Shown here: in pieces, positions 2,356 through 28,120 of the stretch
Numbering within the stretch: the first letter of the stretch is position 1
How the letters are laid out: the number at the start of each line of letters is the position of its first letter
NCBI RefSeq assembly: GCF_000504205.1
Contig: NZ_AZAJ01000001.1
Span: forward strand, 3,012,879-3,076,878
From: Methanolobus tindarius DSM 2278
Lineage (GTDB): Archaea > Halobacteriota > Methanosarcinia > Methanosarcinales > Methanosarcinaceae
Direction of reading: 5' to 3'
DNA length: 64,000 nucleotides
Position numbers and translations under genes: made by a program
Notes under the pieces: generated by a model
Told to the model about the DNA's origin: nothing
Seen by the model: the letters and a program-made list of their open reading frames with translations, nothing else
Databases searched by the model: none

Positions 2356-2440
2356 ATCAGCTATAATAAGACTTAAGTAACTTAATTGTTATTATCTGGT
2401 GTTCAAGACCACACGACCGGCATACACTACTATTCTAACT

Positions 2441-4839: not shown

Positions 4840-4849
4840 AAGATAAAGC

Positions 4850-5155: not shown

Positions 5156-5166
5156 AGGAATACTTG

Positions 5167-8182: not shown

Positions 8183-8194
8183 AGTGTTCACTCC

Positions 8195-8973: not shown

Positions 8974-9014
8974 TTTGTTCACCAACATCTAATAGAAATA
9001 CTTATTACATATTC

Positions 9015-9099: not shown

Positions 9100-9120
9100 T
9101 ATGATAATAGGAAATTTGTC

Positions 9121-11213: not shown

Positions 11214-11235
11214 TTTTATTATCTTTTAGCTGTCC

Positions 11236-11313
11236 TTTTTGTCGTTTTCTACAGGAAATGAGGAGACAAATGTGAACGACAGACAAGAGATAACAACGGA
11301 CAAAACGACAGAC
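11236..11313. repeat. Short AAAACGAC / AACGACAGAC repeats behind cas1
   Basis: In the 228-base gap between cas1 and the KAP gene, AACGACAGAC occurs at 11275-11284 and 11304-11313, and the inverse GTCGTTTT lies at about 11241-11248. This patch is richer in G and C than the AT-rich flanks. The meaning is unknown; it could be a regulatory or terminal-protein site, or chance. After 11313 the gap is AT-rich, with TATA-like sequence before the gene at 11442. Confidence 0.35.
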
Positions 11314-11441
11314 TCCGAAAAGACACGTACATTTTATCTCTTTGTATAATTTAATATATGACTTTTACCATTATATTATTATAATTAAATTCATAAAGTT
11401 AATGTTTGATATAATATTTTTTATGGAAGCGGTGTTCGTAA

Positions 11442-13628
11442 ATGTATAAAATATACGGAGATTCCCCAAAAGAAAATGCTAGTCATTTCAATTTTGATAT
11501 TTATGCAGATTCGTTATTAAAAATCATTCTCAACAACGAAAATAAGACTCCTTTTACAATAGCGATTAATGGGAAGTGGGGGACTGGAAAAACAACTCTG
11601 ATGAAAACATTAAAAAAACAGTTGGATACTTCTACACCTACTGAACAAACAAGAAAAGTTAAAACCGTATGGTTCGATGCTTGGAAATATTCAGAATGTG
11701 ACTCAATGTTATCAGCCTTAATGCGCGAAGTTTTTGAGGAAATGAGGAGACAGGACAAGCTAAGTAAACTAAAATCTAAGTCTTGGTTTGGTCTACGGAA
11801 AGTAAATACTCCAAAGGTAATGACAGATATTACAAAAATGTTGAGTGCAGGCAAACTAGAACCAGAATTTGAAAAATGGGTTGGGAAAAAAGCATATGAA
11901 GAAAAACTTTCCTTTTATGATATTTTTCAGGATGGTATGAAGGAAATCCTTCAAAATTTTGTTCTCGAAAAGACTGATGATAAATACTCGGATGAAAAAG
12001 GAATTCTCGTAATTTTTATTGATGATTTAGACAGATGCTCTCCAAAAAATATTGCATCTATTTTAGAATCTATCAATTTATTTTTGGATCAAGAAGGATG
12101 TTTTTTCATAATAGGAACTGATATCTCCATAATCGCAAACGCAATTGAAGCGAAATATAAAAATATTGACGACTTTTCAGGCATTGAATATATAAAGAAA
12201 ATAATTCAGTTAAAATTTGATCTTCCACTTCTTAAAGAGAATGATATTGAGTATTTCATGCAAAATGAATTGAAAGTTGATTCTAAATTAGATGATTATT
12301 CAGACATAATTGTCAAAGGTCTAAAAAAGAATCAAAGAGAGATCATAAGATTTTTAAACACAATAAACTTAATGAGGATTCTTGGTGCATCTCTTGAAAG
12401 TAAAGACACGTCTCCTGAAGATAAATTTGCATATAATGATGAACTTTTAATAAAATGGAATATTCTAAATTTCTCTTCACCTGATTTTATAGATGATATC
12501 AAAATAAAAAATGACGTTCTTTTTGAAATTCAAGCCATTGCTAGAATAAATGATAAAAAAAGAGATGAACGGATTCAAAGTTTGAAAAAAGATGGTAAAG
12601 AAAAATATTATTCGTACTGTCAAAATGAGAAGATTATCGATGTTTTGTCAAGTGGAAAAGACGAATTTAATGCTAGTAACATTGAAACTTACTTGTTCCT
12701 AAGTAGTATTACTCCAAAAGACATAGACGAGGAACTTCACAAAAAAGCAGAGGCAAAGATCTCACTAGCCGAAAAGGTGAGTTCTATATATGCTGTAGCA
12801 CCAGGTACTGTTTACGAGGGAGACACAACATATACTGGTACAGACCTTCATGATATAATCGGTTTAGATGATGAAAAGTACATCGAAATAAACGCAACTA
12901 ACTTTACTGGTTTCATTTCACAGGAAAAACTCAAGATTTATGGTGGGTCTTTTGTCGATGATAGAACTATTAAGAAGGGAGGACTTGTATACGAAACCCA
13001 AATTGAACAGATGGATTTTCAATCTGATGCATGGAAGGACACCTATAGCATTATGGAATTATTTGGGTATGTGTATGTTCCATTAAAGAATAATACGCCA
13101 AACAAGTTAACAAAGCTACTCATTAACAGTGGTGACAAGTACACTCTGAGACTTGGTTCTGCACTCGAGCTCGCTGATGGGTATGAACTCACTGCAAAGC
13201 AGATTAATGTAACTGGTGACAGAGTGTGGATGGAATTATCAAAGAACGGTGAATTCATAGAAGATAAAGTAATCCATGTTGACGAGAAAACAGATGGAAC
13301 ATGGATATATGATACCGATATTGCAGATGAGGTTAATGTTGAAGTTTTCAGAGTGAATGTAACTAATTTATTCCAAGGACAGGAAGATAGCCTTGTTGTA
13401 GTCGAAGGCATCTGGCTAATTGATTACGAGAATGTCCTTGAGATTGACATCGGTGATGAATTTGGTGTCTTGAAAGTTGACCGTATTGCTGATAGTTCAA
13501 TCATTATGGTAAATGAAGAGTCAATACTTTTAATAAGAAATTCAATACAAGAAATCGCAGAAGGCATGAAATTCAAAGTTGCTGATTCAGATGATCTTAC
13601 GTTCAACCTGATTAGAGTGTATGAATAA
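11442..13628 (+). CDS. KAP-family P-loop NTPase (casposon cargo)
   Basis: 728 residues. The Walker A motif GKWGTGKTT lies near residues 44-52 and the Walker B VIFIDDLDRCSP near 186-197; the IDDLDRC form is the hallmark of the KAP branch of STAND-like NTPases. FDAWKYSE (about 75) is another KAP signature. The usual transmembrane insertion is not obvious. The C-terminal 270 residues are beta-rich and acidic and look like a separate sensing or binding domain. KAP NTPases are frequent in anti-phage defence loci and mobile elements. GGTG lies upstream of the ATG at 11442. Its own promoter is likely because 228 bases separate it from cas1. Confidence 0.85.
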   Translation: MYKIYGDSPKENASHFNFDIYADSLLKIILNNENKTPFTIAINGKWGTGKTTLMKTLKKQLDTSTPTEQTRKVKTVWFDAWKYSECDSMLSALMREVFEEMRRQDKLSKLKSKSWFGLRKVNTPKVMTDITKMLSAGKLEPEFEKWVGKKAYEEKLSFYDIFQDGMKEILQNFVLEKTDDKYSDEKGILVIFIDDLDRCSPKNIASILESINLFLDQEGCFFIIGTDISIIANAIEAKYKNIDDFSGIEYIKKIIQLKFDLPLLKENDIEYFMQNELKVDSKLDDYSDIIVKGLKKNQREIIRFLNTINLMRILGASLESKDTSPEDKFAYNDELLIKWNILNFSSPDFIDDIKIKNDVLFEIQAIARINDKKRDERIQSLKKDGKEKYYSYCQNEKIIDVLSSGKDEFNASNIETYLFLSSITPKDIDEELHKKAEAKISLAEKVSSIYAVAPGTVYEGDTTYTGTDLHDIIGLDDEKYIEINATNFTGFISQEKLKIYGGSFVDDRTIKKGGLVYETQIEQMDFQSDAWKDTYSIMELFGYVYVPLKNNTPNKLTKLLINSGDKYTLRLGSALELADGYELTAKQINVTGDRVWMELSKNGEFIEDKVIHVDEKTDGTWIYDTDIADEVNVEVFRVNVTNLFQGQEDSLVVVEGIWLIDYENVLEIDIGDEFGVLKVDRIADSSIIMVNEESILLIRNSIQEIAEGMKFKVADSDDLTFNLIRVYE

Positions 13629-13647
13629 TCTCTAAATTAATTGAAGC

Positions 13648-13818
13648 CGGATTGTTCAGCAGATACTCACATTGCCTCAAAAGGTAGCTGAGGAATTAGG
13701 AGTTGATAGGAAAACCTTCAAGACAACAAAGAAAGCCATAGGTGAGGCTTTAAGAAAGGGTGAAAAGGTTAATTTATTTACTCCTGTAAGAAAAAGGTTA
13801 GTAGAATATCTCATTTGA
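13648..13818 (+). pseudogene. polB: polB 3'-end fragment, inverted relative to polB
   Basis: The reading frame codes for about 56 residues that match the last 57 of the casposon PolB: IVQQILTLPQKVAEELGVDR, then a segment ending VRKRLVEYLI and TGA at 13816-13818. It has no start codon or upstream polymerase, so it is a remnant. Because it is on the + strand and polB is on the - strand, the two make a long imperfect inverted repeat (5170-5340 against 13648-13818). It starts 19 bases after the KAP gene and probably derives from an earlier casposon. Confidence 0.85.
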
Positions 13819-13836
13819 ATATTCTACATTTTAACT

Positions 13837-15531
13837 TCAAGTAAACCACAATTCATCAAAATATATTTCCTTACCTACAAGTATACTTTTTATTTCCTCA
13901 ATATTTATCCTTGAAATATCTTTTTTGATAACTAAAGCTAGTACGCTTTGAGAAAAATAATCCTCATTTTCATTTGCAGCAATTATACTCTTTTTTAATA
14001 ACGGGTAGATTTCTTCTATAAATTTATCATTTAATTCATTTGAGTACAATATTAAATTGTAGCATGCTGATAATGTCACTAAAGGATTTTTTTCATAATT
14101 CGAAACTAAACAGTCCAAATAAACCGGTGCATCCCCTATAGTTTGAGAATTTAATCCTCCATGATGGCTTATCTTTTCAATAAGGTTTGCAAGACCATGT
14201 CTAAATTCTTCATCTGATTTTTTATCTTCTGCAATTTTACTTAATTGCTCTTCGAATTCACTTAATAATTCAGGGACATATCCTAGGTATAGAAGCATGT
14301 CATCGAAAGTAGATGAATAGTTCTTCCCCGTTTCTAATTCGCGCAATGCATCATTAAACCAATCATCATAATATTCTTTGATTAATATTGAAGTGTTCAG
14401 TTCAAAAGGAATACGTTCAATGTCCCAGCAAACTTGAGATAAAAGCTTTTTAAACAAAATCGAATAATCTTCGTTTTCTTCTTCAAGACCCAAATCTTTG
14501 TTCATTTTTTGTATACTTTTGGGAGAATGGCCATGAGCTGCTGATGAATTTCTAAACTTATTTAATAATTTTAAGTTAGATGTTTTCTCAGTAATCTCAT
14601 TCATTTTTTTTTCGAAAAATTTCTGATTTTCAAAATCTTCCTCATTAGTATCCCATTTATATAAGTTCTCAAATTCTGTTTTTATTAGTTTGTGAAAATC
14701 ATCTCTACTATTGTTATAATTCTCAATATCCACAACTTTTTGTCCATAGTATTGTTCGTGAATATTATCAACTAATAGAAAACGCTTTAAAAGTTCTAAG
14801 CCTCTTAATGGGCGAATGAAAGAATCATAGTGTTTAGAAGCTTTATCGTTTAATCCGTCTGGTTTTACAGAAATTAATGTTAACGTAGAAGAAGGGTATT
14901 TTACATTTTCATCCAACCGATTAAGCAATTTACTCAACAATTTAGTATTTACTGAATCAATTACTAAACAGTTTAATGTAACAACTTTCATTTCAAATTC
15001 TTCAGCTGAAGTGGATTCGTTCATCACTTTTTTCAAAAAACGCAAATGGTAGTCTGCGTGTTCTAAATCAAAAAGATTATCATTAAATAAGTCTGTGTTA
15101 AAATGACTAGCTTCAGGATAGTAAAGTTTAATTTTGTTTTTCATCTGAGAATTGACCATTTCCATAGAACGAACTAAACGATTGATGGTAAATCTGAAAT
15201 CAGTATAGTGATCAGTTAAATCAACTTCACTTGGAAGAATATTATATAATTTCCAATGTTCTAATTCTTCATCAGGAAGCCCTTCACCTAAATCACCCAA
15301 ATTAACAACTATTATTCCATTAGCAACCCTATAGCAACCTCTAAAAGTTCCCCATTCATAACCAAATTGTACTGTGCCATTATCTCCTATTTGATAATTT
15401 CTATCCCCTTCGTATTTTTTTAAAACATCATCTCTAAAGTATACAGAAGCCATAAAACAATCATTTTCATGACTTGCTGCTTTTTTTGCGGATTTTAACC
15501 CTTCATCAGTCTCAAATAGAACGTCATCCAT
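13837..15531 (-). CDS. Large unknown protein with HEPN-like R-x5-H motif (casposon cargo)
   Basis: 564 residues, not recognised as a whole. The N-terminal 80 residues are beta-rich (VYFRDDVLKKYEGD, then GYEWGTFRGCYRVANGIIVVNLG). The rest is helical. Near residues 326-332 the sequence FRNSSAAHGH fits R-x5-H, within the R-x4-6-H pattern of HEPN ribonucleases, and lies in a helical context as expected. HEPN proteins often act in abortive infection or toxin modules, but a short motif is weak evidence. The gene lies alone between the polB fragment and the right end of the casposon, and is divergent from region 3. Codon use is strongly AT-biased, as in 2705-3778. Confidence 0.7.
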   Translation of the reverse strand: MDDVLFETDEGLKSAKKAASHENDCFMASVYFRDDVLKKYEGDRNYQIGDNGTVQFGYEWGTFRGCYRVANGIIVVNLGDLGEGLPDEELEHWKLYNILPSEVDLTDHYTDFRFTINRLVRSMEMVNSQMKNKIKLYYPEASHFNTDLFNDNLFDLEHADYHLRFLKKVMNESTSAEEFEMKVVTLNCLVIDSVNTKLLSKLLNRLDENVKYPSSTLTLISVKPDGLNDKASKHYDSFIRPLRGLELLKRFLLVDNIHEQYYGQKVVDIENYNNSRDDFHKLIKTEFENLYKWDTNEEDFENQKFFEKKMNEITEKTSNLKLLNKFRNSSAAHGHSPKSIQKMNKDLGLEEENEDYSILFKKLLSQVCWDIERIPFELNTSILIKEYYDDWFNDALRELETGKNYSSTFDDMLLYLGYVPELLSEFEEQLSKIAEDKKSDEEFRHGLANLIEKISHHGGLNSQTIGDAPVYLDCLVSNYEKNPLVTLSACYNLILYSNELNDKFIEEIYPLLKKSIIAANENEDYFSQSVLALVIKKDISRINIEEIKSILVGKEIYFDELWFT

Positions 15532-15692
15532 AAAAATACACCTAATATAAATGTAAATAGTGCTTTATTAAGAATTAGATACTTATAATATTTATTATTA
15601 ATACGACTGACATTATAAACATAAGTCAAGATGAAATTGTTTTTTAAAAATGGATTTTTAAGGTTTCAATAATCAAAAATAAATGCATAAAA

Positions 15693-15730
15693 TTAAAAGA
15701 GTGGCATTTTTGGATATTACCTATTACCCC
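15693..15730 (-). repeat. Casposon right terminal inverted repeat
   Basis: Reverse complement begins GGGGTAATAGGTAA and matches the left repeat at 32 of 38 positions. It ends in CCCC at 15727-15730, directly against the right target duplication. The rest of the 15532-15853 gap holds this repeat, the duplication, a second left-end repeat and AT-rich sequence; no gene is seen there. Confidence 0.85.
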
Positions 15731-15742
15731 GCATATTTTTAT
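15731..15742 (+). repeat. Target-site duplication, right copy
   Basis: GCATATTTTTAT, identical to 2522-2533 at the 3' end of tRNA-Leu. Confidence 0.85.
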
Positions 15743-15766
15743 GGGGATATATATAACGTCTAAAAA
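15743..15766 (+). repeat. Second left-end casposon repeat, degenerate
   Basis: Begins GGGGATATATATAACG and, in its first 19 bases, differs from the intact left repeat (2534 on) at only four positions; similarity then fades in A-rich sequence. It sits directly behind GCATATTTTTAT, so this place has the same order (target, then left end) as 2522-2571. It is best read as the left end of an older element that occupied the same site. No matching right end was found near 25.2-26.1 kb. Confidence 0.7.
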
Positions 15767-15853
15767 AGTGTACGCTTTTGTCTAACACTTTTAATTTTAA
15801 GTACTTGTTTAATTGACAACGTTTATTATATGTGAAGTGTTAAAATATTTGTA

Positions 15854-16333
15854 ATGAGCCAGAGAAACAAAGGTTTAGAACCAATAATTAATGACAACAC
15901 AGAAATATTGATTCTCGGAACTTTTCCTGGTGAAAAATCAAGGGATAAAAATCAATATTATTATGATTCTCGAAATCAATTCTGGAATATAATGTGTGAT
16001 GTGCTTAATACCAGCTTTTTGAATTTAGAATATAGTAACAGAATTCATATTCTACAGGAATGCAAAATAGGATTATGGGATATTATAGAATCTTGTGAAA
16101 TAGAAGGTAGTTTAGACAAAAACATCAAAAACCCAGAGTATAATGATTTTTCTCATTTAACTCAGATAAAGAAAATAATCTGTAATGGAAAAGCAACAGA
16201 AAATAAATACAAAGAACATTGCAAAATCCTATATAATGTAGAGGTTTTAAGGGTTCCATCTTCAAGTTCTGCAAATAATGGTTCAATTGGTCGTTCTGAA
16301 CAATGGAAAAATTCAATAAATAGTCAAGTTTAA
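15854..16333 (+). CDS. Uracil/hypoxanthine-DNA glycosylase-like protein (UDG superfamily)
   Basis: 159 residues. The N-terminal active-site motif is ILILGTFPGEKS (about residues 18-29), followed by YYYDSRNQFWNIM. The C-terminal motif is VPSSSSANNGSIG, the counterpart of LPSTSPAN in the family-6 (hypoxanthine) and related glycosylases. Family-6 members remove hypoxanthine (deaminated adenine) from DNA; this role is inferred from motif spacing. It is transcribed towards and convergent with hsdR, with 31 bases between them. It lies just inside the older element left end and shares its low GC content. Confidence 0.8.
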   Translation: MSQRNKGLEPIINDNTEILILGTFPGEKSRDKNQYYYDSRNQFWNIMCDVLNTSFLNLEYSNRIHILQECKIGLWDIIESCEIEGSLDKNIKNPEYNDFSHLTQIKKIICNGKATENKYKEHCKILYNVEVLRVPSSSSANNGSIGRSEQWKNSINSQV

Positions 16334-16364: not shown

Positions 16365-19262
16365 TTAATAGTGCTCTCTGATATATTCATAAGCCTTATC
16401 AAACAATTCTCGTTCTTTATGCAACTTGTATTTCAACAAAGTCTTACTTAACGCCTTTTGAACATCCCTCTCCCCTGATGATGTCCATTGCCAGCCATCA
16501 AATCGAGTATATTTAACAACCTCATCAATATCATTAACAATTCTTTCTATGATTGCTGGTGTCGTTTCAATCTTGCATTCAAGGAATAATTTTGTTAATG
16601 CTTGTTTTGTATCATCAACTGGCTCTGCTTCAGTTTCTCTTTCCAGTTTGACTGTGTCACGGGCTATCTCCAGGAGTTTCTTGAGAAAATCAATACTGCT
16701 GATGGCATTTCTGTAATGCATCTCCTTTACTTTCTCCAATCTTTCTCCGAGCTCCTGGAATCTTGGGTCATCCACATGAACGTGTAATCTCCATTCAATC
16801 TTTAAGACAAGCTTCTTTCCTTTTACATCGGCATCTTTATCCGTAAGATGATCAAGGATATTGGCATCCATTATCAGGGTTTCAAGGTCATCCCTGATTG
16901 TTTGCACGGTGACATTTTCATGGATTAGTTTCAGTGTTTTGGCACCAAGGGCATGCCAGATCAGTTTTCCATTACCGCTTGGTGGTCTTATGGACTCATA
17001 GACCTGTGTAAGCCATTTGTAATCCTGTTCATATTCGTTCAAAAATGAATCTGGAGATATAGCTTCCCAGTGACGGGATAAATAAGAGTAATCAGCTGCA
17101 AAGAAATCTCTGCTTTCATCTGTTCTCAGACAATCCTGAGCTGCAAGCAGCCCTTCGTATCCATCCAGAGCTCTGTCAACACCTTCAAAGTGTGAAAGGC
17201 AAGTTTCCAAAGCACGTGGGAACTCTGCTTTTAGCATTTCAATGTTGGAAATTACTGTTTTCATTTCCTCTACATCAAAATCCAAAGCTGATGCTACATT
17301 ATCGAATATCCCAAGGTAGTCAATTATTAGCCCATGGTCCTTGTCTGGGTAAGGTCTGTTAACACGGCAGATTGCCTGCAGAAGGTTATGGTCCTTCATT
17401 GGCTTGTCAAGGTACATTGCCTGGTTGATTGGTGCATCAAATCCAGTAAGCAGTTTTGATGTTACGATAAGAAGTTTCAGTGGGTCATTGGGATCTCTGA
17501 ACCTATCCAGTAGTTTTTCCTGTTCATCATCTGTCAGAGAATAGTTTTGCTTCCAGTAGTCAGAGTCTTTCTGCCTCAGTGTCATAACAACAGCAGACTC
17601 TTCAGGTGGCATGTGTTTGTCTATTTCTTGCTTGTACAGATGGCAAGCTTCTCTGTCCCATACGACAACCTGTCCCTTGAAATCATTGGGATCCACATGT
17701 TTCTTGTAATGCTGGACAATATCCTTACAGACTCTACTGATTCTGGCAGGTGTTTTGGCCAGGACTCCATATTTTCCTGCACGGTCAGAAAGTTCAGATT
17801 TGTCACCGTAGCTGAGGTTATTTTCCTTTGCCATCCAGTCAAATTCTTCATCGATGGCTTTTTTATTAATGTGTAATTCAACGGGACGTGGTTCAAAATA
17901 GATTGGCAGGGTTGCTTTATCTATGATAGACTGTTCGAAAGAGTAACGACTGAGATATCCGTTCTCGTCTTCTTCTGCTCCGAAGGTCCAGAATGTGTTT
18001 CTGTCTCTGGTGTTGATTGGTGTACCTGTGAGACCAAAGAGGAATGCATTTGGAAGAGCTTGTCGCATTTTCGTACCAAGGTCTCCTTCCTGGGTTCTGT
18101 GAGCTTCATCAACAAGGACTATGATGTTTTCCCTGTCGTTGAGGACTCCTTCAGCCTCTCCGAATTTGTGAATAGTTGTGATTATGATTTTCCTTGTGTC
18201 CTGTTTCAGTAGCTGTTCCAGTTCTTCCCTTGAATCAGTCATGACGACATTCGGAACGTTGGAAGCGTTAAAGGTTGCACTTATCTGAGAATTGAGGTCT
18301 ATTCTGTCTACGACCACAAGAACCGTAGGACTCCTGAGTTCAGGGTTACGTCGCAGTTGCATGGCTGCGTATACCATGAGCAAGGATTTACCTGAACCCT
18401 GGAAATGCCATATCAGACCTTTCCTGATCCTTCCATCAATAACTCTCTGAACAATCTGTTTTGCAGCTTCATACTGCTGATAGCGGCAGAGAATCTTAAT
18501 CTTCTGACCACCTTTTGTGGTGCTGTATAAGGTGAAATCTTTCAGTAATTCAAGAACAACTTCAGGTTTTAGCATCCTATTAACGGAGCTTTTGACTTCA
18601 TCCAGCAGATCGAATGCATCTTCCTCAGTCTCTCTCCATGGTTGCCATTTCTCTATTGGTAACTTTATGGAACCTACACGATAGACCTTGCCTTCTGTAG
18701 CAAAACAGAATACATTAGGTACAAAGATCTCAGTAACTGAATTCTGGTACTCTTCAAGTTGGGCAGCTCCATCTACCCATGAAACCGCAGGCCTTACAGG
18801 ACTCTTTGCCTCCCCGATTACTAGTGGAATACCATTAACCAGCAGAACAATATCGGGCCTTCTTTCCTGACCACTCTTAAAGGTGTACTGGGTTGTTACA
18901 ATGAAATCATTGTTTTTGAGATTATCATAATCTATGAGCCTGACAGAAACATGTTCTCCATTCTCCCCGAAAGGCATGGTTTTTTCATTACGAATCCACT
19001 CGGAAAACTCCTCATTTGCTCTCACAAGCCCCATTCCCTTTGCACTCTGAATGATTGCCCGAAGCTTGTAAAGAACTTCATCAGCACGACCTGGCTCTTC
19101 AGCAATGGAAGGATTCAGTCTTATAAGAGAATCGATGAGATGCATCTCAATCAGCACATCAGCTTCTCTCCTTGGAAGCTGCTCTCTTGGTACAAATTTC
19201 CATCCCATATTTGTCAGAAGATCTCTGACAAAATTCTCGACTGCGTTTTCCTCATTGAACAT
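16365..19262 (-). CDS. hsdR: Type I restriction enzyme, R subunit
   Basis: 965 residues. The N-terminal nuclease motif is RRPDIVLLVNG followed by LVIGEAKSP (Asp...Glu-x-Lys, about residues 134-153), a PD-(D/E)XK site. The helicase part has Walker A QGSGKSLL (about 289-296), the DEAH box VDEAHRTQ (about 385), TGTP (near 413) and a later VNRPYPDKDHG motif. HsdR cuts DNA at a distance after ATP-driven translocation when the site is unmethylated. It is the last gene of the operon; its start overlaps the end of the 583-aa gene by 11 bases. All motifs appear intact. Confidence 0.95.
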   Translation of the reverse strand: MFNEENAVENFVRDLLTNMGWKFVPREQLPRREADVLIEMHLIDSLIRLNPSIAEEPGRADEVLYKLRAIIQSAKGMGLVRANEEFSEWIRNEKTMPFGENGEHVSVRLIDYDNLKNNDFIVTTQYTFKSGQERRPDIVLLVNGIPLVIGEAKSPVRPAVSWVDGAAQLEEYQNSVTEIFVPNVFCFATEGKVYRVGSIKLPIEKWQPWRETEEDAFDLLDEVKSSVNRMLKPEVVLELLKDFTLYSTTKGGQKIKILCRYQQYEAAKQIVQRVIDGRIRKGLIWHFQGSGKSLLMVYAAMQLRRNPELRSPTVLVVVDRIDLNSQISATFNASNVPNVVMTDSREELEQLLKQDTRKIIITTIHKFGEAEGVLNDRENIIVLVDEAHRTQEGDLGTKMRQALPNAFLFGLTGTPINTRDRNTFWTFGAEEDENGYLSRYSFEQSIIDKATLPIYFEPRPVELHINKKAIDEEFDWMAKENNLSYGDKSELSDRAGKYGVLAKTPARISRVCKDIVQHYKKHVDPNDFKGQVVVWDREACHLYKQEIDKHMPPEESAVVMTLRQKDSDYWKQNYSLTDDEQEKLLDRFRDPNDPLKLLIVTSKLLTGFDAPINQAMYLDKPMKDHNLLQAICRVNRPYPDKDHGLIIDYLGIFDNVASALDFDVEEMKTVISNIEMLKAEFPRALETCLSHFEGVDRALDGYEGLLAAQDCLRTDESRDFFAADYSYLSRHWEAISPDSFLNEYEQDYKWLTQVYESIRPPSGNGKLIWHALGAKTLKLIHENVTVQTIRDDLETLIMDANILDHLTDKDADVKGKKLVLKIEWRLHVHVDDPRFQELGERLEKVKEMHYRNAISSIDFLKKLLEIARDTVKLERETEAEPVDDTKQALTKLFLECKIETTPAIIERIVNDIDEVVKYTRFDGWQWTSSGERDVQKALSKTLLKYKLHKERELFDKAYEYIREHY

Positions 19263-21003
19263 TTTCTGTATTCTCCTCTGAGAAAGAATCTAGAAAATCT
19301 CTAAACTGATCTCTAAACTCATCATAATAAATACCTCTATCCCAAACAGTTCTATCATCATAATGTTCTACAGGATATTTGAGGAAATCTATGAATGATT
19401 GATTTACTACTGAATACCCAGTTACCTTATCTTCAATACACTTATTATATTTTTCTATAAATAATGAAGTTTTCTCTTGATCATGGTATGCTGCAAGTTC
19501 AAAATAATTTTCAATCATTATTTCACGGAGATAATTTTTGAAATAATCTCTCAATACCTGAGAAGAAGATACTTTTTCCATTAAATCAACAATAGTTTTG
19601 ATAGAATATTCTATAATAAGATTATTTTCGGGTGTATACTCATCTTCTTTAACATATCGTATCCAATCTCGAAGGCAATCAGTAATAAGATACAAACAAT
19701 ATTCATACATGTTTGAAAATTCAGCATCTTCGTGATCATTATAACTAATATTGTGTAATATGTGCTCTGACCAATATTTAAAGTATATTAACCACATGTG
19801 ATTATGAATGTTCTGCATTAATGCTTGTTTTACCATAGTGTCAAAGAACTTAATTCCAGAATACAGCGGTGTATTATTTCTCTTTTCGTCATAATATTCT
19901 TCGTAATAATTATATTCATCAATATCTTTACGACTTTGTTCTCGTAAGTGTTGTATTACGTATTCTCCAATTGGCCTCCATACAAGCCATTGGTCATACT
20001 TGTCGCTATCACCATTAGTAAATAAGAAATCAAGAATTTTTGTTTGTCTGGATTTTTCATTGTTGAGTTCTTTGTGAAGCTTGCTTTTTTCATTAGAGAT
20101 TAATTGAGTTCCAATTACAAACCAAGCTTCCTTTTTATTGTATGGTATCTTATTATCAAGAAGCATGAACATTAAATCAGTATTATTCATAGAAACAAAT
20201 TCGAGAAACTCACTATTCCCTACAAGTTCATAGTAGTAATTATTTATAAGCAGGCAATAAGACTCTCTTCTGTTTCGTATAAATCGTAAACGATGAAAAA
20301 AAATTTTAATTAAACTCTTTTCTTTCTTTTTGGTAAGAATAGAAGAAAGTATCCTGCCGAAGCCTTCTGATACTTCTTTCTGCTTTATTTTGTAATCTTT
20401 ATATGAAATAAGCTCTCCTTGCAAGCGTTTAATTGCTGCTTTTGGAGATCGTATATTTTGAAAGTTAATGCTTTTTTGTAGAATTTTTGCTATGTATGTT
20501 ATGTAAGTAAATATGGAATATGGCTTTGTTTTTGGTGGATTATACGATTTGAGAAGGTCATAATGGAATAATTCAAGGTCAGCAGCCACTTCTGCATATT
20601 GTTGTCTTCCAAGTTTATCAAGAGAATTAGAGACAAAATCTTTTTTTTGTTTCAATTTCGTCGAATTCAATTTTCCTTTTGCAAATAAAATCAGAATAAT
20701 AGAAACCAAAAAAGCAAGAACAGAAGCCAAAAAAGAATAAGTTATTTTGTACCCCTCGGATGTTCCTATATCATAAACAAATGGATTTGTTGATAATGAA
20801 ATATTGATGTAATTCCCTGATACTTGTTCCGACCAAAAATTCGCTGCAAAAATAGCAAATATGAGAAGCACTGCAAAATAACCTAAAAATATTTTATCAA
20901 AAAAACCAATTTTGAATACGAAATTTCTCTTCTTAGATTCTTCGCTAATTTGATATATAGAGATAATAAAACCTATAATAGTAAGAGGTAGCATAAAGTC
21001 CAT
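19252..21003 (-). CDS. Membrane protein of unknown function inside the type I RM operon
   Basis: 583 residues. Three membrane segments near the N-terminus are visible: about 3-19 (LPLTIIGFIISIYQIS), 33-53 (FFDKIFLGYFAVLLIFAIFA) and 89-107 (SFLASVLAFLVSIILILFA). The remaining 470 residues are a soluble, mostly helical cytoplasmic region rich in Tyr, Asn and Lys, with no recognised domain. It starts directly after the hsdS stop codon and overlaps the hsdR start, so it is translated with the restriction system. Such an insertion between hsdS and hsdR is not part of the standard operon and may be an added defence or control protein. Confidence 0.8.
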   Translation of the reverse strand: MDFMLPLTIIGFIISIYQISEESKKRNFVFKIGFFDKIFLGYFAVLLIFAIFAANFWSEQVSGNYINISLSTNPFVYDIGTSEGYKITYSFLASVLAFLVSIILILFAKGKLNSTKLKQKKDFVSNSLDKLGRQQYAEVAADLELFHYDLLKSYNPPKTKPYSIFTYITYIAKILQKSINFQNIRSPKAAIKRLQGELISYKDYKIKQKEVSEGFGRILSSILTKKKEKSLIKIFFHRLRFIRNRRESYCLLINNYYYELVGNSEFLEFVSMNNTDLMFMLLDNKIPYNKKEAWFVIGTQLISNEKSKLHKELNNEKSRQTKILDFLFTNGDSDKYDQWLVWRPIGEYVIQHLREQSRKDIDEYNYYEEYYDEKRNNTPLYSGIKFFDTMVKQALMQNIHNHMWLIYFKYWSEHILHNISYNDHEDAEFSNMYEYCLYLITDCLRDWIRYVKEDEYTPENNLIIEYSIKTIVDLMEKVSSSQVLRDYFKNYLREIMIENYFELAAYHDQEKTSLFIEKYNKCIEDKVTGYSVVNQSFIDFLKYPVEHYDDRTVWDRGIYYDEFRDQFRDFLDSFSEENTENVQ

Positions 21004-22206
21004 TTAAACTCGCACCTCTCCTTTCAAACATTCATCCGTTAGTTTCTTCTTTAAATCATACAAATAATCAATATTCTCCAGTGCCTTTTTCTGCAGAACA
21101 TAAAATTGATCAAGTTTTTCAGATATTTGGCATTGCTCTTCAATTGGAGGAACAGCCACGTTGAATAAATCAAAATTCTTTTTGGTTATCGATTTAAATG
21201 TTGAACCATATGATGAATGCTTTATACTTTCAACCAGAATCATTAGTAGATAGTATGCATAGTTTGAAGTAACTTTATCAGTACTGCTAATACCATAACA
21301 AGATTGATTAAAAGCCATCGGTTTTGCAATTTTAGCAACGAGTCCAACAGTTCCTCGAGCAGATATAATTAAGTCATCTTGTTGAAGGAGTTTTGTGGAA
21401 CTTTCATTTAAACCTTTTTCAGTTATCCTTTTAACCGTACTCTCTATATACATTCCATCTTTTGGAAAATCTTCTACAGATATCCATGGAATACTACCGT
21501 TCCAGTATTCTGGGTTTGTAGTTTTGGGAGTGCCACCACCAATGATGGTTATTACATCAGATAAAGGATAAATATTCCACTTTTCAGGTATACTTCCTAT
21601 TTCAGTTTTCTTGAATTTTTCATGTCCGATACCTTTAGTTAATAATTTGTTGAGAAGACCGCATTTTAGTTTTACAGCTACACTTATTACTTCATTGTTT
21701 TTTTCAATGTTATCTTGAATACTCCATATCGTTTCAACAATCTTTTTCTGCTCTTCGATAGAAGGAATTACAACTTCCTCTTCTGCAAGTTGATTCCATT
21801 TTATTCTCTTTGAAAATGCACCAGCTGAAAGTGCTATAATTTTATTCTCGAAAGGTTCAAATTGCATGAAGATAGGCAAAAATCCCTTTATTATGTGCTT
21901 CAGTATTGGCTCTAAAACAATTATATCACCAGAACATACTCCATCAAATGGAGCTACAGATACCCTTCTCAAGTAAGTGTTCCTTCTGGCAAAGAGAATG
22001 TCATCTTTTTCAAATCGTTTCATCGTAGATGTGACATCACTTGTACTGCCATATCGTTTTACAACTAATTCCCCTGAATCAAGATGTTCTAATCCAACGT
22101 ATTTTTCGTAGCCAGATTCACCAGGGTCATCTACTCTAACTGACTTTTGTTTTGCAAGTTCCTTAAACTTGACTTTTATCCAGTTCTCTGGAATTTCCTG
22201 GTTCAA
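21004..22206 (-). CDS. hsdS: Type I restriction-modification specificity subunit
   Basis: 400 residues with two target-recognition domains. The first covers about residues 5-150 and ends in a helical spacer (SIEEQKKIVETIWSIQDNIE...LLNKLLTKGIG). The second begins with the typical EIGSIPEKW at about 203 and ends with PPIEEQCQISEKLDQF and a second helix. Each domain binds one half of a split DNA site, and the helices set the gap. Its ATG overlaps the hsdM stop (ATGA). The site itself cannot be predicted by eye. Confidence 0.93.
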   Translation of the reverse strand: MNQEIPENWIKVKFKELAKQKSVRVDDPGESGYEKYVGLEHLDSGELVVKRYGSTSDVTSTMKRFEKDDILFARRNTYLRRVSVAPFDGVCSGDIIVLEPILKHIIKGFLPIFMQFEPFENKIIALSAGAFSKRIKWNQLAEEEVVIPSIEEQKKIVETIWSIQDNIEKNNEVISVAVKLKCGLLNKLLTKGIGHEKFKKTEIGSIPEKWNIYPLSDVITIIGGGTPKTTNPEYWNGSIPWISVEDFPKDGMYIESTVKRITEKGLNESSTKLLQQDDLIISARGTVGLVAKIAKPMAFNQSCYGISSTDKVTSNYAYYLLMILVESIKHSSYGSTFKSITKKNFDLFNVAVPPIEEQCQISEKLDQFYVLQKKALENIDYLYDLKKKLTDECLKGEVRV

Positions 22207-23696
22207 TTTATAACCTCCTTGAGAACATCTGATAAATTACAATAGGATTCTTTTAGCTGTTGCGAACTATTCTGCCACTCTGAAATAACCTCTTCAATCG
22301 TTATTTCTTCTTGCTGATTCTCTTCTGAAAATTCAGGACGGGCATACAATGCAACATTAATAACATGGTTATTATCTCTTATTTCATCCAATGTAGCAAT
22401 CTTTGTCCTCCCTGGCACTTCCTCAAACTCAGAATACCATTTGTATATACTGGAAATATGTTCTTCTGAAAGGAAACTCTGAGTTTTCTCCTTTACGATC
22501 TGGTCATAGGCTCGGATGAAAAATACTTTTCCTTTACGTTTTTCTGGTTTGTTTTTGTTGCAGACTACAATGCAGGAATCCATTGGTGAATTGTAGAATA
22601 AATTTGGTCCAAGCCCAATTACACAATCCACTAAATCATCTTCTATTAGCTTGCTACGCATATCCAATTCTGCATCTCTGAACAAAATCCCATGTGGCCA
22701 GAGTATTGCACACCTTCCAGTTCTTTTTTTCATGGATGCAATAATGTGCTGGAAGAAAGCATAATCTGCACATCCCTGTGGTGGTGTACCATAGATATTT
22801 CTGCCCCATGGATCATGTTGCCAAGCTTTCTGGTTCCACTTTTTTATAGAATATGGAGGATTGGCCAGAACCATGTCAAACTGTTTAACTCGATCATTTT
22901 CCACAAATGCAGGATTTGATAGTGTGTCTCCTCTTACGATGTGGAAATCCTCGAAACCATGGAGGAACATATTCATCCTTGCGATTGCTGAGGTTATAAT
23001 ATTGATTTCTTGTCCGTACAGACTGATGTTTCTGTATTCCTGGCCGTTTTCCTTGGCCAGAAGAGCGGCGTTGAGTAGCATACCACCTGAACCACAGGTA
23101 GGATCATAGATACTCTCGCCTGTTTTCGGGTCAACTATCATGCTCATCAGGCGTACAACTGTGCGGTTAGTATAGAATTCTGCAGCAGTATGACCGCTAT
23201 CGTCAGCAAACTTCTTGATCAGGTACTCATAGCCTGTACCAAACTCATCCTGTGGTACATTTTTGAGTGAGAGGTTGATAGTTGAGAAATGTTCAACAAG
23301 GTCAATGAGAATCTTATCGGTCAGACGGTTCTTGTTTGTCCAGTTAGTATCCCCGAAAATACCTGCAAGCCTGTCTGGATTGGCCTTCTCAATTTCACTC
23401 ATGGCAGTCTTAATTGCCTTGCCCACATCAGTGGAAACATTCCTGACATCCTCCCAGTGTGCACCCAATGGAACCTGGAATCTGTGGTTCTCTGCAAACT
23501 CCGCGTATTCCTTATCTCCATCAGACTCTTCAAGAGCTTCCTGGTATTCTTCATCATAGACATCAGATATACGCTTAAAGAACATTAACGGGAATATAAT
23601 ACTCTTATACTCTCCTGGATCAATAACGCCTCTGAGAAGCACAGCAGCTCCCCAAAGATACTGCTCAAGTTCCTGCTGAGATATTGTTTTGCTCAT
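22203..23696 (-). CDS. hsdM: Type I DNA methyltransferase subunit (second hsdM)
   Basis: 497 residues. An N-terminal helical domain (QYLWGAAVLLRGVIDPGEYK) precedes the methylase domain. The SAM-binding motif is DPTCGSGGMLL (about 200-210) and the catalytic motif is ANPPYSIKKW (about 280-289): N6-adenine methylation. It has Tyr in the NPPY position, where the upstream copy has Phe. Overlaps at both ends (ATGA with the first hsdM and with hsdS) show coupled translation. The two copies are clearly paralogous along their full length, but diverged. Confidence 0.94.
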   Translation of the reverse strand: MSKTISQQELEQYLWGAAVLLRGVIDPGEYKSIIFPLMFFKRISDVYDEEYQEALEESDGDKEYAEFAENHRFQVPLGAHWEDVRNVSTDVGKAIKTAMSEIEKANPDRLAGIFGDTNWTNKNRLTDKILIDLVEHFSTINLSLKNVPQDEFGTGYEYLIKKFADDSGHTAAEFYTNRTVVRLMSMIVDPKTGESIYDPTCGSGGMLLNAALLAKENGQEYRNISLYGQEINIITSAIARMNMFLHGFEDFHIVRGDTLSNPAFVENDRVKQFDMVLANPPYSIKKWNQKAWQHDPWGRNIYGTPPQGCADYAFFQHIIASMKKRTGRCAILWPHGILFRDAELDMRSKLIEDDLVDCVIGLGPNLFYNSPMDSCIVVCNKNKPEKRKGKVFFIRAYDQIVKEKTQSFLSEEHISSIYKWYSEFEEVPGRTKIATLDEIRDNNHVINVALYARPEFSEENQQEEITIEEVISEWQNSSQQLKESYCNLSDVLKEVIN

Positions 23697-25177
23697 AATA
23701 CACCCACCTCTTTCAGTAAAGCTTTCATTTTCTCCTCGGATTCAAGGAACTCATCGTATGCCTTATTCAATTCCTGGAACGTCTCTTTAAGGTCAATCTC
23801 TTCAACAACAAGTTGCTTTCTGACATATCTAGTAATATTGAGATTGAACTCGTTCTCCTTGATCTCATCAATATCTACTACTTTACTGATGTCTTCAATA
23901 TCCTCAAACTTCTCATACCATTCAAGAACCTGCTCAGCATGTTCCTCTAAAAAGAAATTCTGATTCCTTCCCTTCTGATACTGCTCAGAAGCATCAATAA
24001 ACAGAACTTTATTCTTATTTGCTTCATCCTTCTGATTTCTGTACACAAGGATGCATGCACTGATGCCAGTACCATAAAACAGGTTAGGTCCAAGACCAAT
24101 CACAGCTTCCAGCAGATCATTCTCGATCAGCTTCTTCCTGATTTTACCTTCAGCTCCACCCCTGAACAGTGCACCATGAGGCAACACAATTGCCATCCTG
24201 CCTGTCATTGGAGCCATGGATGATATCATATGCTGAACCCACGCATAATCTCCATTACTCTTTGGTGGTGTTCCTGCAATATTCCTCCCGAAAGGATCAT
24301 GAGGCCAGTGTTCATGTCCCCAGTTCTTCAAAGAAAATGGAGGATTGGCTATCACCGCATCAAACTGAGAAAGCATATCTCCTTCATGGAAAGAAGGATT
24401 TCTCAGTGTATCGCCTCTGATAATCTCAAAGTCCTGGACACCGTGTAAAAACAGATTAATTCTGGCAATCGATGAGGTTGTCAAGTTCTTCTCCTGACCA
24501 TAGAGTTTCAGTGTCCTCTCATCTCCACCTTTATTCTTAACATAATGATAAGCTTCCAGCAGCATACCACCAGAACCACATGCTGGATCATATATGGATT
24601 CCTTCTCCTGTGGCTTGAGGATACTACCCATCAAATGAACGACAGTTCTCGGAGTATAGAACTCTCCTGCCTTCCTGTTGGTCAGATCTGCAAACTTCTT
24701 AATCAAATATTCATAAGCCTGCCCCAGCATATCAGGTTCAACATACTTCTTGGAAAGGTTTTTACTTGAAAAATGGTCAATCAAATCTATCAGAAGCGCA
24801 TCAGATAATCTGTCCTTGTTACTCCAGTTAACATCACCAAATATCTCGTATAACTTGTCCTGATTTTTCTTCTCAATCTCACGGAAAGCATGCTGAAGTG
24901 CCTGACCAACATTGGTAGTTTTCTCTTTCACATCATCCCAATGAGCACCTTCAGGAATTATGTAATCATGCAGTTCTGGAAAAGATGCATATTCCTCGTC
25001 ACCATCAGACTCATCCAATGCTTGCTTATATTCTTCATCGTAGACATCTGATATTCTCTTGAAGAATAAAAGTGGGAATATGTATGCCTTGAAATCCGAT
25101 GCATCTACAGGTCCTCGCAGGATGTTTGCTGCATCCCATAGATATTGTTCAAGTTCTGAAAGAGTGATCTTTTCCAT
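23693..25177 (-). CDS. hsdM: Type I DNA methyltransferase subunit (first hsdM)
   Basis: 494 residues from ATG 25177, preceded by GGAG about 11 bases upstream. The frame stays open to 25249, but that extension lacks similarity to HsdM and has no ribosome site. SAM motif DPACGSGGMLLEA and catalytic ANPPFSLKNW are present, as is the N-terminal helical domain (ELEQYLWDAANILRGPVDASDFK). Type I enzymes normally have one hsdM gene whose product is used twice. Two different M genes suggest a mixed M1-M2-S enzyme or two activities. It is the first gene of the leftward operon. Confidence 0.94.
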   Translation of the reverse strand: MEKITLSELEQYLWDAANILRGPVDASDFKAYIFPLLFFKRISDVYDEEYKQALDESDGDEEYASFPELHDYIIPEGAHWDDVKEKTTNVGQALQHAFREIEKKNQDKLYEIFGDVNWSNKDRLSDALLIDLIDHFSSKNLSKKYVEPDMLGQAYEYLIKKFADLTNRKAGEFYTPRTVVHLMGSILKPQEKESIYDPACGSGGMLLEAYHYVKNKGGDERTLKLYGQEKNLTTSSIARINLFLHGVQDFEIIRGDTLRNPSFHEGDMLSQFDAVIANPPFSLKNWGHEHWPHDPFGRNIAGTPPKSNGDYAWVQHMISSMAPMTGRMAIVLPHGALFRGGAEGKIRKKLIENDLLEAVIGLGPNLFYGTGISACILVYRNQKDEANKNKVLFIDASEQYQKGRNQNFFLEEHAEQVLEWYEKFEDIEDISKVVDIDEIKENEFNLNITRYVRKQLVVEEIDLKETFQELNKAYDEFLESEEKMKALLKEVGVL

Positions 25178-25445
25178 TATTGAAATGTCTCCATATTCTG
25201 TTTTGATGGCATCTAAGAAGCCCCTGAATAAATAATAAGTATGTATCAATAAAATGGTTTGAATGCTGTATGTCAGACAACTTCATAACTTTAACTTAAT
25301 AAATTTAAATTTATGTTAATCGTACCTTTTCAAGGTACTTTTCAGTGTTTAATTTATCTTCTAGAAAGGTCTCCTAAGAGTGTATCTAATGTCTCTTGGA
25401 ATTGTATCTCAAATATAGCATGAGAAGATAAAAGAGACAATAAAA

Positions 25446-25949
25446 TCAACTACTTGCAACAAGCTTTTCCCATTGTTCCATGCGTTCTTTATTATGAGCA
25501 TTAAGCGTAAAAGGAGTATCTGCCTTCGCATTTATCTTCATGTAATGCAACGTTCCCTTTGAAAATCCTAGCTTTTTCCAGTCTGAATAAGAAATACTCA
25601 ATATCTTCTGTCGTATGTCGCTTGAGTCTTGTCGCTTTGTCTCATACTGAGGGACAATAAAATCAATGTCCTTTCTTTTGTCTGTTAAATATTGAGCTAA
25701 TTCCCTAGTCTTCAGGAACATGACATAACTCCACATCGTCATATTTCCTTTGTAGCTAACTCTCTTGTTAAACCACAAATTGACCTCTTCAGTTAGCTTC
25801 TTAGCTCCACTTGGTCTGAGTCTGAGTGAGTAATTATCAGTCCTGATGAAGTCCTTCTTTTCCATCCTGTCAGTCTCAATGAGGCTGATTACTGCCATAT
25901 CTACAAGGAATCTAAAAGGCTCTTGAAGGTCATAGGCTAAACTGTTCTT
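25446..25949 (-). pseudogene. cas1: Truncated cas1 (casposase) remnant
   Basis: Codes for the last 167 or so residues of a casposase, starting at KNSLAYDLQEPFRFLVD and ending LVASS. It aligns without gaps to residues from about 237 of the intact cas1 at 9999-11213 and differs at only about a dozen positions. The catalytic Glu and His are lost. Read upstream, the frame meets a TAA and changes into polB-like sequence. Similarity also continues a little past the stop codon (GTTGATTTTATT). This is a dead relative of the intact casposon, on the opposite strand. Confidence 0.92.
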
Positions 25950-26011
25950 TTATCCAGTATTCCAGTTTCCCCACCAAACTTAGCTTCAGGATGATCTACA
26001 TAATCGGTTAA
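25950..26011 (-). pseudogene. polB: polB internal fragment fused to the cas1 remnant
   Basis: Translates as LTDYVDHPEAKFGGETGILDK, close to LEYANHPEAKFDGEAGVLER of the intact PolB (near residue 795-810). It is on the same strand as, and directly upstream of, the cas1 remnant. The joint lies in a CTGGA/A-rich stretch present in both genes, which suggests a deletion through microhomology. Confidence 0.75.
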
Positions 26012-26143
26012 TTATGGCAAAGCTGTTGCAAGTGAACAATAGAATTATCTTGATTAAAATAAATATATATTTTCAAATGAAGATACATTTATTAAGTCGC
26101 ACAACTTCATAAATAACCGGGAATATAAAAGGTGTTGTTGAAT

Positions 26144-27073
26144 ATGAATAAAACATCAGGATGTGCTATCTGTCTAATTCTAATCATATTATGCACAGGA
26201 TGTATTGAAAACAAACAAGTGCAATTGATTGATGGGGATGAATACGTGGATACACGTAATTCCCTAACGGAAGAAAAGATATCTTTAATTGATAATTTTG
26301 CTGAAGATCTAAATAATGCAGAAGAAATAGCATCCTATGTGCAGCAGATGGAAGTAATAGATTTTTATAGTCGACCTAAAGCAGGCTACATATTTGGTGA
26401 AGTCGCATTTTACAGGGATGAAGATGAATTAGAGAATTTAGAATATACGGAGTCTCTTATCCACTTTAACAGAACACCGATTCATTTTGTAGGTCTCAAC
26501 AACATCGAAGAGTTTGGTGATGTAGAATACGGCAGGTCACATTTGAATGCAATCATATCTTCCGCATTCACTCCGATGTATGGTGCTGAGGATGAGCAAC
26601 TTAATTGCATAATTTTTTCCAGGAATATCCTCTTAAATCATTGTTTGTCAGAGGAACACAAAGAAAGATTAGTAAGCGTCTTAAAGATAGTTGATACATG
26701 GGGACAATTCAGAGAGAGCATGATACATACTAATGTCCCAATAAACGGTTCTGACGCAAATAGGACATTTGCAATCGATAATGTTGGAGATGCAAATATA
26801 ATAATGAATACTGAATGGGATCAGGATGATCTTAAACAGTATTTCGAATTTTTAGATTCATCCGGTTTTAACTCCTCTGAAGAGTTATTGTCTTTTGCAC
26901 GTCAATTTACAGTTGCAAAAAAGAGCATTAATGACGATATGTCAGAAAGTACACATGTTAAGATAAACAATGCAAGAGTGTATGTAGTTGCCAATTTCCC
27001 GCAATATAGTGATGAAGGCATTCAAAAAGATGATATGCGTGCATATCTTACTCTGGATGATTACAAAGAATGA
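26144..27073 (+). CDS. Lipoprotein, unknown function
   Basis: 309 residues from ATG 26144, with GGTG at 26131-26134; the frame is open from a GTG at 26132 but that would overlap the ribosome site. A signal peptide ends in a lipobox LCTGC (Cys near residue 20), so the protein should be anchored outside the cell membrane. The mature part is acidic, with no recognised domain; notable pieces are RTPIHFVGLNNIEEFGDVEYG and VYVVANFPQYSDEG. It is the first intact gene after the decayed element region and appears to be chromosomal. Confidence 0.75.
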   Translation: MNKTSGCAICLILIILCTGCIENKQVQLIDGDEYVDTRNSLTEEKISLIDNFAEDLNNAEEIASYVQQMEVIDFYSRPKAGYIFGEVAFYRDEDELENLEYTESLIHFNRTPIHFVGLNNIEEFGDVEYGRSHLNAIISSAFTPMYGAEDEQLNCIIFSRNILLNHCLSEEHKERLVSVLKIVDTWGQFRESMIHTNVPINGSDANRTFAIDNVGDANIIMNTEWDQDDLKQYFEFLDSSGFNSSEELLSFARQFTVAKKSINDDMSESTHVKINNARVYVVANFPQYSDEGIQKDDMRAYLTLDDYKE

Positions 27074-27238
27074 AATCTTTTGTTAGTACTCTTTCCAGAA
27101 TTCTGACGTATGCACCAATTATTAACTTTCTTTTTTTTACATGAACAGAATCATTTTATCCGTTTCCAACAACATCGACAAAATTAATAACCAATATTTA
27201 CATATGCTTATAAAGTTGCTATAGTGTGAGGTAATGAG

Positions 27239-28120
27239 ATGGATCATAAAAGATCAATTGTTTTTGTAGCTCTGGTTTCAATTTGTCTTTTGGTATCTGG
27301 GTGTTCTGGGCCGGAAATGACAACTGAAATTACAGCAAATAATACTTTAAGCTACAAGGATGCAAACCTTACATTGACTTTAACGCCTGAAACGGTAAAT
27401 ACAAGTGAACTTTCAAACCTGCAGCTCAGTTTAACAAATGAAGGAAAATACCCGATTAATGTTGATAAATTCCGTCACCAATGTAATTATAAAATTATTT
27501 ATGCTGATGGATGGGACGTTGAATATGAGTCGATGCCGATGTGTGTAGAGATAGGAGACGATTCACTTATTGAGATTATGCCCGGGGAATCGTATACAGT
27601 AAACGTAGATGATGCAGGTCATTGGCAGGGACAGTTAAGAAAAGGCAATGATTCAATATCTGTTGTGTATTATCCTACAGGTAGTAGCTATACCACTCAT
27701 AAATTCTGGACTGGAAAGCTTAGATCAAACAACATAACTTACATTTCTGAAAGTGTCAAAAATGAGTCACAGGAAAACATAGAAGGCAACAAAATATTTA
27801 ATGGTACGATCCAGATGGGAGACGGATATCTGGCAAATGATATTTTATTCAATATTAACTATATATCAGTTGGAACAAAATATGCAACCATCGCAGTATA
27901 TCAGGGTGAAGAGAGAACTGAATATATTAAAATATACGAAGGTGAAACCCGCATAGTTAATTATGAAAACAGCCCTCGTATTGCATTGAAATTAATTGAT
28001 ACCTTCGAGAGAGAAAATGTCGCAGGAAATTTTTCAATAACTGTTGAAAATAGCAATCTTTCGGTTAATGACGGCGGCATAGTTGAAGGTGGATTTTATG
28101 AGATGTATCTAAATGATTAA
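27239..28120 (+). CDS. Lipoprotein with immunoglobulin-like regions
   Basis: 293 residues. The signal peptide ends in LLVSGC (Cys22), giving lipid attachment. The mature protein is beta-rich: residues about 40-150 read as an intracellular-protease-inhibitor/Ig-like fold (LSNLQLSLTNEGKYPINVDKF, then MPGESYTVNV), and a second beta domain covers about 180-290. Many Asn-x-Ser/Thr sites suit a surface glycoprotein. The start has GAGGTAATGAG just upstream. No partner is evident; it is monocistronic between AT-rich gaps. Confidence 0.72.
   Translation: MDHKRSIVFVALVSICLLVSGCSGPEMTTEITANNTLSYKDANLTLTLTPETVNTSELSNLQLSLTNEGKYPINVDKFRHQCNYKIIYADGWDVEYESMPMCVEIGDDSLIEIMPGESYTVNVDDAGHWQGQLRKGNDSISVVYYPTGSSYTTHKFWTGKLRSNNITYISESVKNESQENIEGNKIFNGTIQMGDGYLANDILFNINYISVGTKYATIAVYQGEERTEYIKIYEGETRIVNYENSPRIALKLIDTFERENVAGNFSITVENSNLSVNDGGIVEGGFYEMYLND

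What the first reader, a model, noticed from the sequence alone, without database searches (positions are those of the whole stretch)
25446..26011. Dead cas1 joined to a polB piece by apparent microhomology
A cas1 3' part close to the intact gene continues upstream into a PolB fragment (VDHPEAKFGG). The joint falls in a CTGGA/A-rich stretch present in both genes. In the intact casposon these genes point in opposite directions, so the ancestor was arranged differently or was inverted before the deletion. It marks the likely far end of the older element.
Basis: seen in the sequence. Interest (0 to 1): 0.6.

Follow-up and report, generated by a model that had tools for sequence, protein, structure and literature searches.

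The report
Scar of a collapsed casposon array
Next to a complete-looking casposon (a mobile element that inserts itself with a Cas1 enzyme) this methane-making archaeon carries the scar of older neighbouring casposons, where a broken cas1 gene became fused to a scrap of DNA polymerase gene, probably from the next copy along; it is ordinary gene wreckage, but it hints at how rows of casposons at one tRNA gene shrink and mix.

Summary
On the minus strand a 71-base polB piece (26013-25943) runs into the last ~165 codons of a casposon cas1 (to 25446); the joint lies in a short stretch resembling both genes. It is no fused gene: the halves are in different frames with stops at the joint, and one of three Cas1 catalytic residues remains. 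No match in the 26 other Methanolobus genomes held crosses this joint. In all 21 Methanolobus loci looked at (18 at length) the end of tRNA-Leu(TAA) abuts a casposon-like end; elements stack there in both orientations, separated by 14-base target copies. An inverted element followed by a direct one, seen in three relatives, puts cas1 and polB on one strand, so one deletion between such neighbours would give this joint. The complete casposon (2535-15729) is followed, after one target copy, by the end repeat of an inverted, truncated casposon carrying a type I restriction system (15744 to ~25950); then come the polB scrap and, at 26009, a sequence like the inner part of another casposon end. Microhomology is plausible, unproven. 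Known kind of element; modest interest.

The parts
2440..2525 (+). tRNA-Leu (TAA), the insertion hotspot
   Evidence: ARAGORN
2521..2534 (+). 14-base target site CGCATATTTTTATG, first copy, overlapping the tRNA 3' end
2535..15729 (.). complete casposon A, direct orientation (polB minus, cas1 plus), bounded by terminal inverted repeats
5167..7857 (-). polB of casposon A
   Evidence: Pfam DNA_pol_B_2
9999..11213 (+). intact cas1 (casposase) of A
   Evidence: Pfam Cas_Cas1; best PDB chain 6opm, E 2e-196
13636..13815 (+). extra polB 3' tail inside A (one stop), opposite in strand to A's own polB
15730..15743 (+). second exact copy of the 14-base target site, between A and B
15744..15775 (+). terminal repeat of older casposon B; like both ends of the G010 casposon and the cas1-side end of the G004 casposon
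15854..16333 (+). uracil-DNA-glycosylase-like gene, cargo of B
   Evidence: Pfam UDG
16365..25249 (-). cargo of B: type I restriction-modification genes (hsdR, unknown gene, hsdS, two hsdM)
   Evidence: Pfam; NCBIfam
25446..25950 (-). truncated cas1 of B (residues ~239-404); contains the 150-aa ORF 25446-25898; lacks catalytic E162 and H232
   Evidence: residue numbers from PMC6977970
25943..25962 (-). joint 1: stretch resembling both cas1 and polB
25943..26013 (-). polB piece (residues ~784-807), probably from a third casposon C in direct orientation
26009..26030 (+). joint 2: 20 of 22 bases match the inner end repeat of a G005 casposon; the outer ~14 bases of that end are missing
26132..28120 (+). 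two genes read here by eye as lipoproteins (no Pfam match), possible cargo of a fourth, eroded element

Best explanation
The feature is the scar of a collapsed casposon array. Casposons inserted repeatedly at the 3' end of tRNA-Leu(TAA), in either orientation, each leaving a 14-base target copy. Right of the complete element A lay an inverted element B (cas1 on the minus strand) and then a direct element C (polB on the minus strand). A deletion running from inside B's cas1 to inside C's polB removed everything between, leaving cas1 and polB pieces on the same strand. A further loss cut C back to 71 bases, now abutting what looks like the inner part of another casposon end. The joint may have used the short similar stretch. 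Shown: the pieces, frames, target copies, end repeats, and inverted-then-direct neighbours in relatives. Inferred: that C existed, the deletion, and the part played by microhomology.
For: Exact 14-base target copies at 2521 and 15730 with casposon ends on both sides of the second. B's end repeat resembles casposon ends of G010 and G004, and its cas1 3' flank matches theirs (to 25390 and 25381). In 10 of the 18 loci read at length there are 11 neighbour pairs separated by a target copy (0-2 mismatches) with a cas1 or polB piece on both sides; taking the piece nearest the copy, 3 are direct-direct, 3 direct-inverted, 3 inverted-direct (G005, G016, G024) and 2 inverted-inverted. A second, different cas1-polB joint exists in G016 at about 19789. 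No match in the 26 other genus genomes spans the joint: cas1 matches stop at query base 71 or before (83 in two) and polB matches start at 64 or later.
Against: No end repeat or target copy of C was found, so C rests on 71 bases. The polB type of the piece is ambiguous: good matches include both polB types. Microhomology depends on the stand-in parents: a random-box test gives fractions from 0.0002 to 0.37 over 15 parent pairs, and 0.15 with the window's own intact genes. Orientation of the second element rests on fragments in 8 of the 11 pairs, some next to pieces on the other strand (G022, G016, G024); the G005 target copy has 2 mismatches.
Confidence: 0.66

Rival explanations
1. One older casposon suffered an internal inversion that put polB on cas1's strand, and then a deletion joined them.
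For: Would also give same-strand pieces. The polB tail on the plus strand inside A shows that reversed pieces do occur at this locus.
Against: Needs two events in one element. The 13 elements read with near-full copies of both genes keep cas1 and polB divergent, while opposite-orientation neighbours are common.
Confidence: 0.13
2. The polB scrap reflects a casposon inserted into another casposon's polB, followed by a small deletion: end repeat next to polB, then about 100 bases lost. This can be true together with the best explanation.
For: In G005 a complete casposon end (TATATCCC followed by AGCA) abuts a polB fragment at about 17065; the window has an inner end repeat next to polB at 26009.
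Against: Explains joint 2, not joint 1. The outer end is missing in the window.
Confidence: 0.25
3. The cas1 end is not dead: the 150-aa ORF still makes a Cas1 fragment without catalytic residues but with the HTH part, in a regulatory role.
For: Open frame over 165 codons; dN/dS against 12 of 14 other copies (those with a defined value) is 0.03-0.13.
Against: Low dN/dS between copies can be inherited from before the break; 3 of the 4 sites private to this copy lie in codons with a private residue, but n is 4. No start signal was tested.
Confidence: 0.05
4. A genuine lineage of casposons has polB upstream of cas1 on one strand.
For: None found.
Against: Not seen among the 13 elements with both genes in the 18 loci read, nor as this joint in 27 genus genomes.
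Confidence: 0.03

Closest known systems
Family 2 casposons (Methanosarcina mazei MetMaz elements)
   Same: Cas1 of element A aligns over 402 of 404 residues with the M. mazei casposase 6opm; PolB; 14-base target duplication starting CGCA at the 3' end of tRNA-Leu; element ends GGGATATA, the reverse complement of TATATCCC, as described in PMC6977970 (passages seen).
   Different: The feature itself is a broken remnant, joined to a scrap of polB from what seems to be another element.
Tandem casposon arrays (M. mazei; the two adjacent casposons of Methanolobus psychrophilus R15)
   Same: Repeated insertion at one site with target copies in between, reviewed in PMC9939771 (passages); insertion of a mini-casposon beside a resident one in vivo in PMC10359463 (passages).
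   Different: Here stacking is read in 10 of 18 Methanolobus loci, in both orientations, with decayed members. The review passage explains the R15 pair by chromosomal rearrangement rather than two insertions into one site.

Membership tests
Family 2 casposon (element A) | Cas1 casposase with C-terminal HTH extension | tested here: met
   6opm aligned over residues 1-402, E 2e-196; catalytic E162, H232, E247 present (residue numbers from PMC6977970)
Family 2 casposon (element A) | Family B DNA polymerase | tested here: met
   Pfam DNA_pol_B_2, E 1e-10
Family 2 casposon (element A) | HNH nuclease and two HTH proteins | tested here: inconclusive
   Homologues present in relatives' casposons, but no Pfam match for the three proteins and no NCBIfam match for the HNH-like one; names given by eye
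Family 2 casposon (element A) | Terminal inverted repeats and 14-base target duplication beginning CGCA at tRNA-Leu | tested here: met
Family 2 casposon (element B, holding the dead cas1) | Both terminal repeats and an intact cas1 | tested here: not met
   Only the 15744 end found; cas1 lacks residues before ~239
Fused PolB-Cas1 gene | One open reading frame across the joint | tested here: not met
   Different frames, stops at the joint

The most novel reading that the evidence does not exclude
Collapse of casposon arrays by deletion between oppositely oriented neighbours is a general route by which casposons trade ends and cargo: the same process that left this scar may also have made the still TIR-bounded casposon A a chimera, since it carries an extra polB tail on the wrong strand towards its right end, as one M. 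vulcani casposon also does.
Probability: 0.25. Interest if true: 0.5.

Novelty: new member of a known kind. Interest (0 to 1): 0.3.

Why it matters
Casposons are the proposed source of CRISPR adaptation. A genus in which one tRNA gene collects casposons in both orientations, with complete, truncated and fused copies side by side, is a natural record of repeated insertion at a regenerated site and of how such rows are lost. It offers material for testing whether casposons recombine into new combinations of cargo. The single joint is ordinary wreckage.

Tried and rejected
Fused-gene idea: rejected on frames and on the lack of any match across the joint in the other 26 genus genomes. Insertion-sequence end as explanation of joint 2: the motif TTNTGGCAACNCTNTTGCAAAGTACAAC gave 1 match in 4 genomes at up to 3 mismatches, so no multi-copy element was seen there. 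Third copy of the 14-base target near 26000: none in the window at up to 2 mismatches (only the two exact copies, and shuffles give about one such match). First microhomology ranking placed the joint wrongly in several stand-in parents and is superseded. The order of pieces in G016 was checked and is a different joint. Short isolated cas1 hits (about residues 229-253) in G002 and G016 probably reflect the most conserved block being the last detectable; not pursued. B's end repeat does not by itself tell B's orientation: it resembles both ends of the G010 element.

Rows dropped: of 27 genus genomes known here, 18 were read at length at the locus and 3 more (G015, G018, G023) only for the 656-758 bases up to the contig end; G003, G011, G014, G019, G040 and G041 were not read there. 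In 2 of the 18 (G009, G021) no cas1 or polB piece was found in the stretch read. The tree and dN/dS used 15 cas1 copies out of the 20 plus the remnant; G001b, G001c, G012, G022rem, G006rem and G002rem were left out, some frameshifted or cut, others simply not taken, and dN/dS against G001a and G008rem was undefined.

Full report
What was checked. The minus strand from 26013 to 25446 holds a polB piece followed by the 3' part of a casposon cas1. The cas1 part matches the intact cas1 of the window over 531 nt at 85.5%, and a search of the 3,151,883-base genome with 25200-26300 found only itself and that intact gene. The polB part is short: 24 residues with E 0.001 against the window's own polB, 26 residues with E 2e-4 against a relative's polB, and 71 bp at 80% identity (E 9e-12, in a 60-kb locus) to the third polB of relative G001. 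The two halves are in different frames and each frame has a stop at or just after the joint. The catalytic residues given for the M. mazei casposase are E162, H232 and E247 (PMC6977970, passage). The intact cas1 has all three; the remnant starts at about residue 239 and keeps only E247, and its 150-aa ORF (25446-25898) begins after that.

The setting. The genome is a Methanolobus by its kin: a scan with the intact cas1 returned 6 loci, all titled Methanolobus. Names of some unnamed relatives follow from equal contig lengths: G010 is M. bombayensis, G022 M. vulcani B1d, G017 M. profundi, G016 the MAG Soudan_28. The complete casposon A spans 2535-15729. Its ends are inverted repeats, and it is flanked by exact copies of CGCATATTTTTATG at 2521-2534 and 15730-15743, the first overlapping the 3' end of tRNA-Leu(TAA). 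This fits the 14-base duplication beginning CGCA at tRNA-Leu described for M. mazei (PMC6977970, passages). Directly after the second copy, at 15744, stands another casposon end, GGGATATATATAACGTCTAAAAAAGTGTACGC. It resembles both ends of the casposon in G010 (95% and 92% over 38 bases) and the cas1-side end of that in G004 (97% over 36). The remnant cas1 is on the minus strand to its right, and its 3' flank matches the cas1 3' flanks of G010 and G004, so this end and the cas1 are read as an inverted casposon B. Its cargo is a uracil-DNA-glycosylase-like gene and a type I restriction-modification cluster with hsdR, hsdS and two hsdM genes.

Relatives. At 18 of 18 Methanolobus loci read at length (own one included), and at 3 more seen only up to a nearby contig end, a casposon-like end begins right after the 14 bases at the tRNA end; in 16 of the 18 a cas1 or polB piece lies in the stretch. 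Six further genus genomes were not read there. In 10 of the 18 loci the 14-base site recurs between two elements with a cas1 or polB piece on both sides: 11 such pairs, of which, by the piece nearest the site, 3 are direct-direct, 3 direct-inverted (this window among them), 3 inverted-direct (G005, G016, G024) and 2 inverted-inverted. The site copies are exact in 7 pairs, with 2 mismatches in G005 and in both pairs of G001, and 1 in G007. In 8 of the 11 pairs the second element is known from fragments only. An inverted element followed by a direct one brings cas1 (minus) and polB (minus) next to each other in the order seen here. One deletion then gives the observed joint, without an inversion. 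G016 holds another cas1-polB joint, with the pieces in the other order.

The joint. In a search of 27 genus genomes with the 161 bases around the joint, 20 have some match (the own genome included); relatives' cas1 matches end at query base 71 or before (83 in two), their polB matches start at base 64 or later, and none crosses the joint. So both genes match the same few bases. The shared stretch looks like GAATACTGGAAAGAA in some cas1 copies, with close variants in polB copies. Against random 35 x 35 boxes of the same two genes, the best shared run at the joint was reached in fractions between 0.0002 and 0.37, depending on which of 15 pairs of stand-in parents was used; with the window's own intact genes it was 0.15. 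Microhomology is therefore plausible and not shown.

The right side. From about 26000-26023 rightwards, depending on the search, the window matches two relatives (of 39 others searched) at other chromosomal places, with different left neighbours, so a second break lies near 26010. The bases 26009-26030 match, at 20 of 22, the inner part of a casposon end in G005. None of 100 shuffles of the window gave a match at up to 3 mismatches, though the pattern was chosen after a BLAST hit. In G001 the two genes that follow are themselves followed by a piece of cas1. They may be cargo of a fourth, eroded element. In G005 a complete casposon end abuts a polB fragment at about 17065, which suggests that casposons sometimes land inside a neighbour's polB.

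Age. Over 165 codons dN/dS against the other copies is low: 0.03-0.13 for the 12 of 14 comparisons with a defined value. The remnant has 4 private nucleotides of 495, fewer than 11 of the 14 other copies, and 3 of these 4 lie in codons with a private residue; few private changes and an open frame suggest a recent break. Against this, the tree gives the remnant a tip branch of 0.07 substitutions per site, about as long as those of other copies, and the private count depends on which relatives were sampled. The age stays open.

Knowledge compared. Tandem casposons are in print for Methanosarcina, and two adjacent casposons for Methanolobus psychrophilus R15 (PMC9939771, passages); insertion of a mini-casposon beside a resident casposon has been seen in vivo (PMC10359463, passages). 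Searches of the paper library for casposon with 'inverted orientation' (0 papers) and with 'pseudogene' and 'array' (4 papers, listing only) showed no report of such fused remnants; the original 2014 and 2016 casposon papers were not in the listings seen and were not read. Verdict: a real remnant of a known kind of element, best explained by the collapse of an array; modest interest.

Noticed in passing
13636-13815 (+): Casposon A holds an extra polB 3' tail (with one stop) on the strand opposite to its own polB, 83% identical over 60 residues, downstream of cas1 and a KAP-NTPase/S-layer-domain gene; an M. vulcani casposon (G022 12670-12801) has a similar tail that is closer to the polB of relative G004 (76%) than to its own (55%).
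   Followed up: partly
2440-2545 and relatives: tRNA-Leu(TAA) abuts a casposon-like end in 21 of 21 Methanolobus loci looked at, with the first element direct in some and inverted in others.
   Followed up: partly
L018 with L023 (G001:C1:938-966 kb): Three casposons in a row in the same orientation; tblastn breaks the cas1 genes of the second and third into two pieces, as by a frameshift or stop.
   Followed up: no
L020 about 17040-17100 (G005): A casposon end followed by AGCA lies next to a polB fragment, suggesting an insertion of one casposon into another.
   Followed up: partly
11442-13628 (+): Casposon A carries a gene with an N-terminal KAP NTPase and a C-terminal S-layer domain, which looks an odd combination for cargo.
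   Followed up: no
26132-28120 (+): A pair of genes without Pfam match; both or the first also occur at other chromosomal places in two relatives, once followed by a cas1 scrap.
   Followed up: partly
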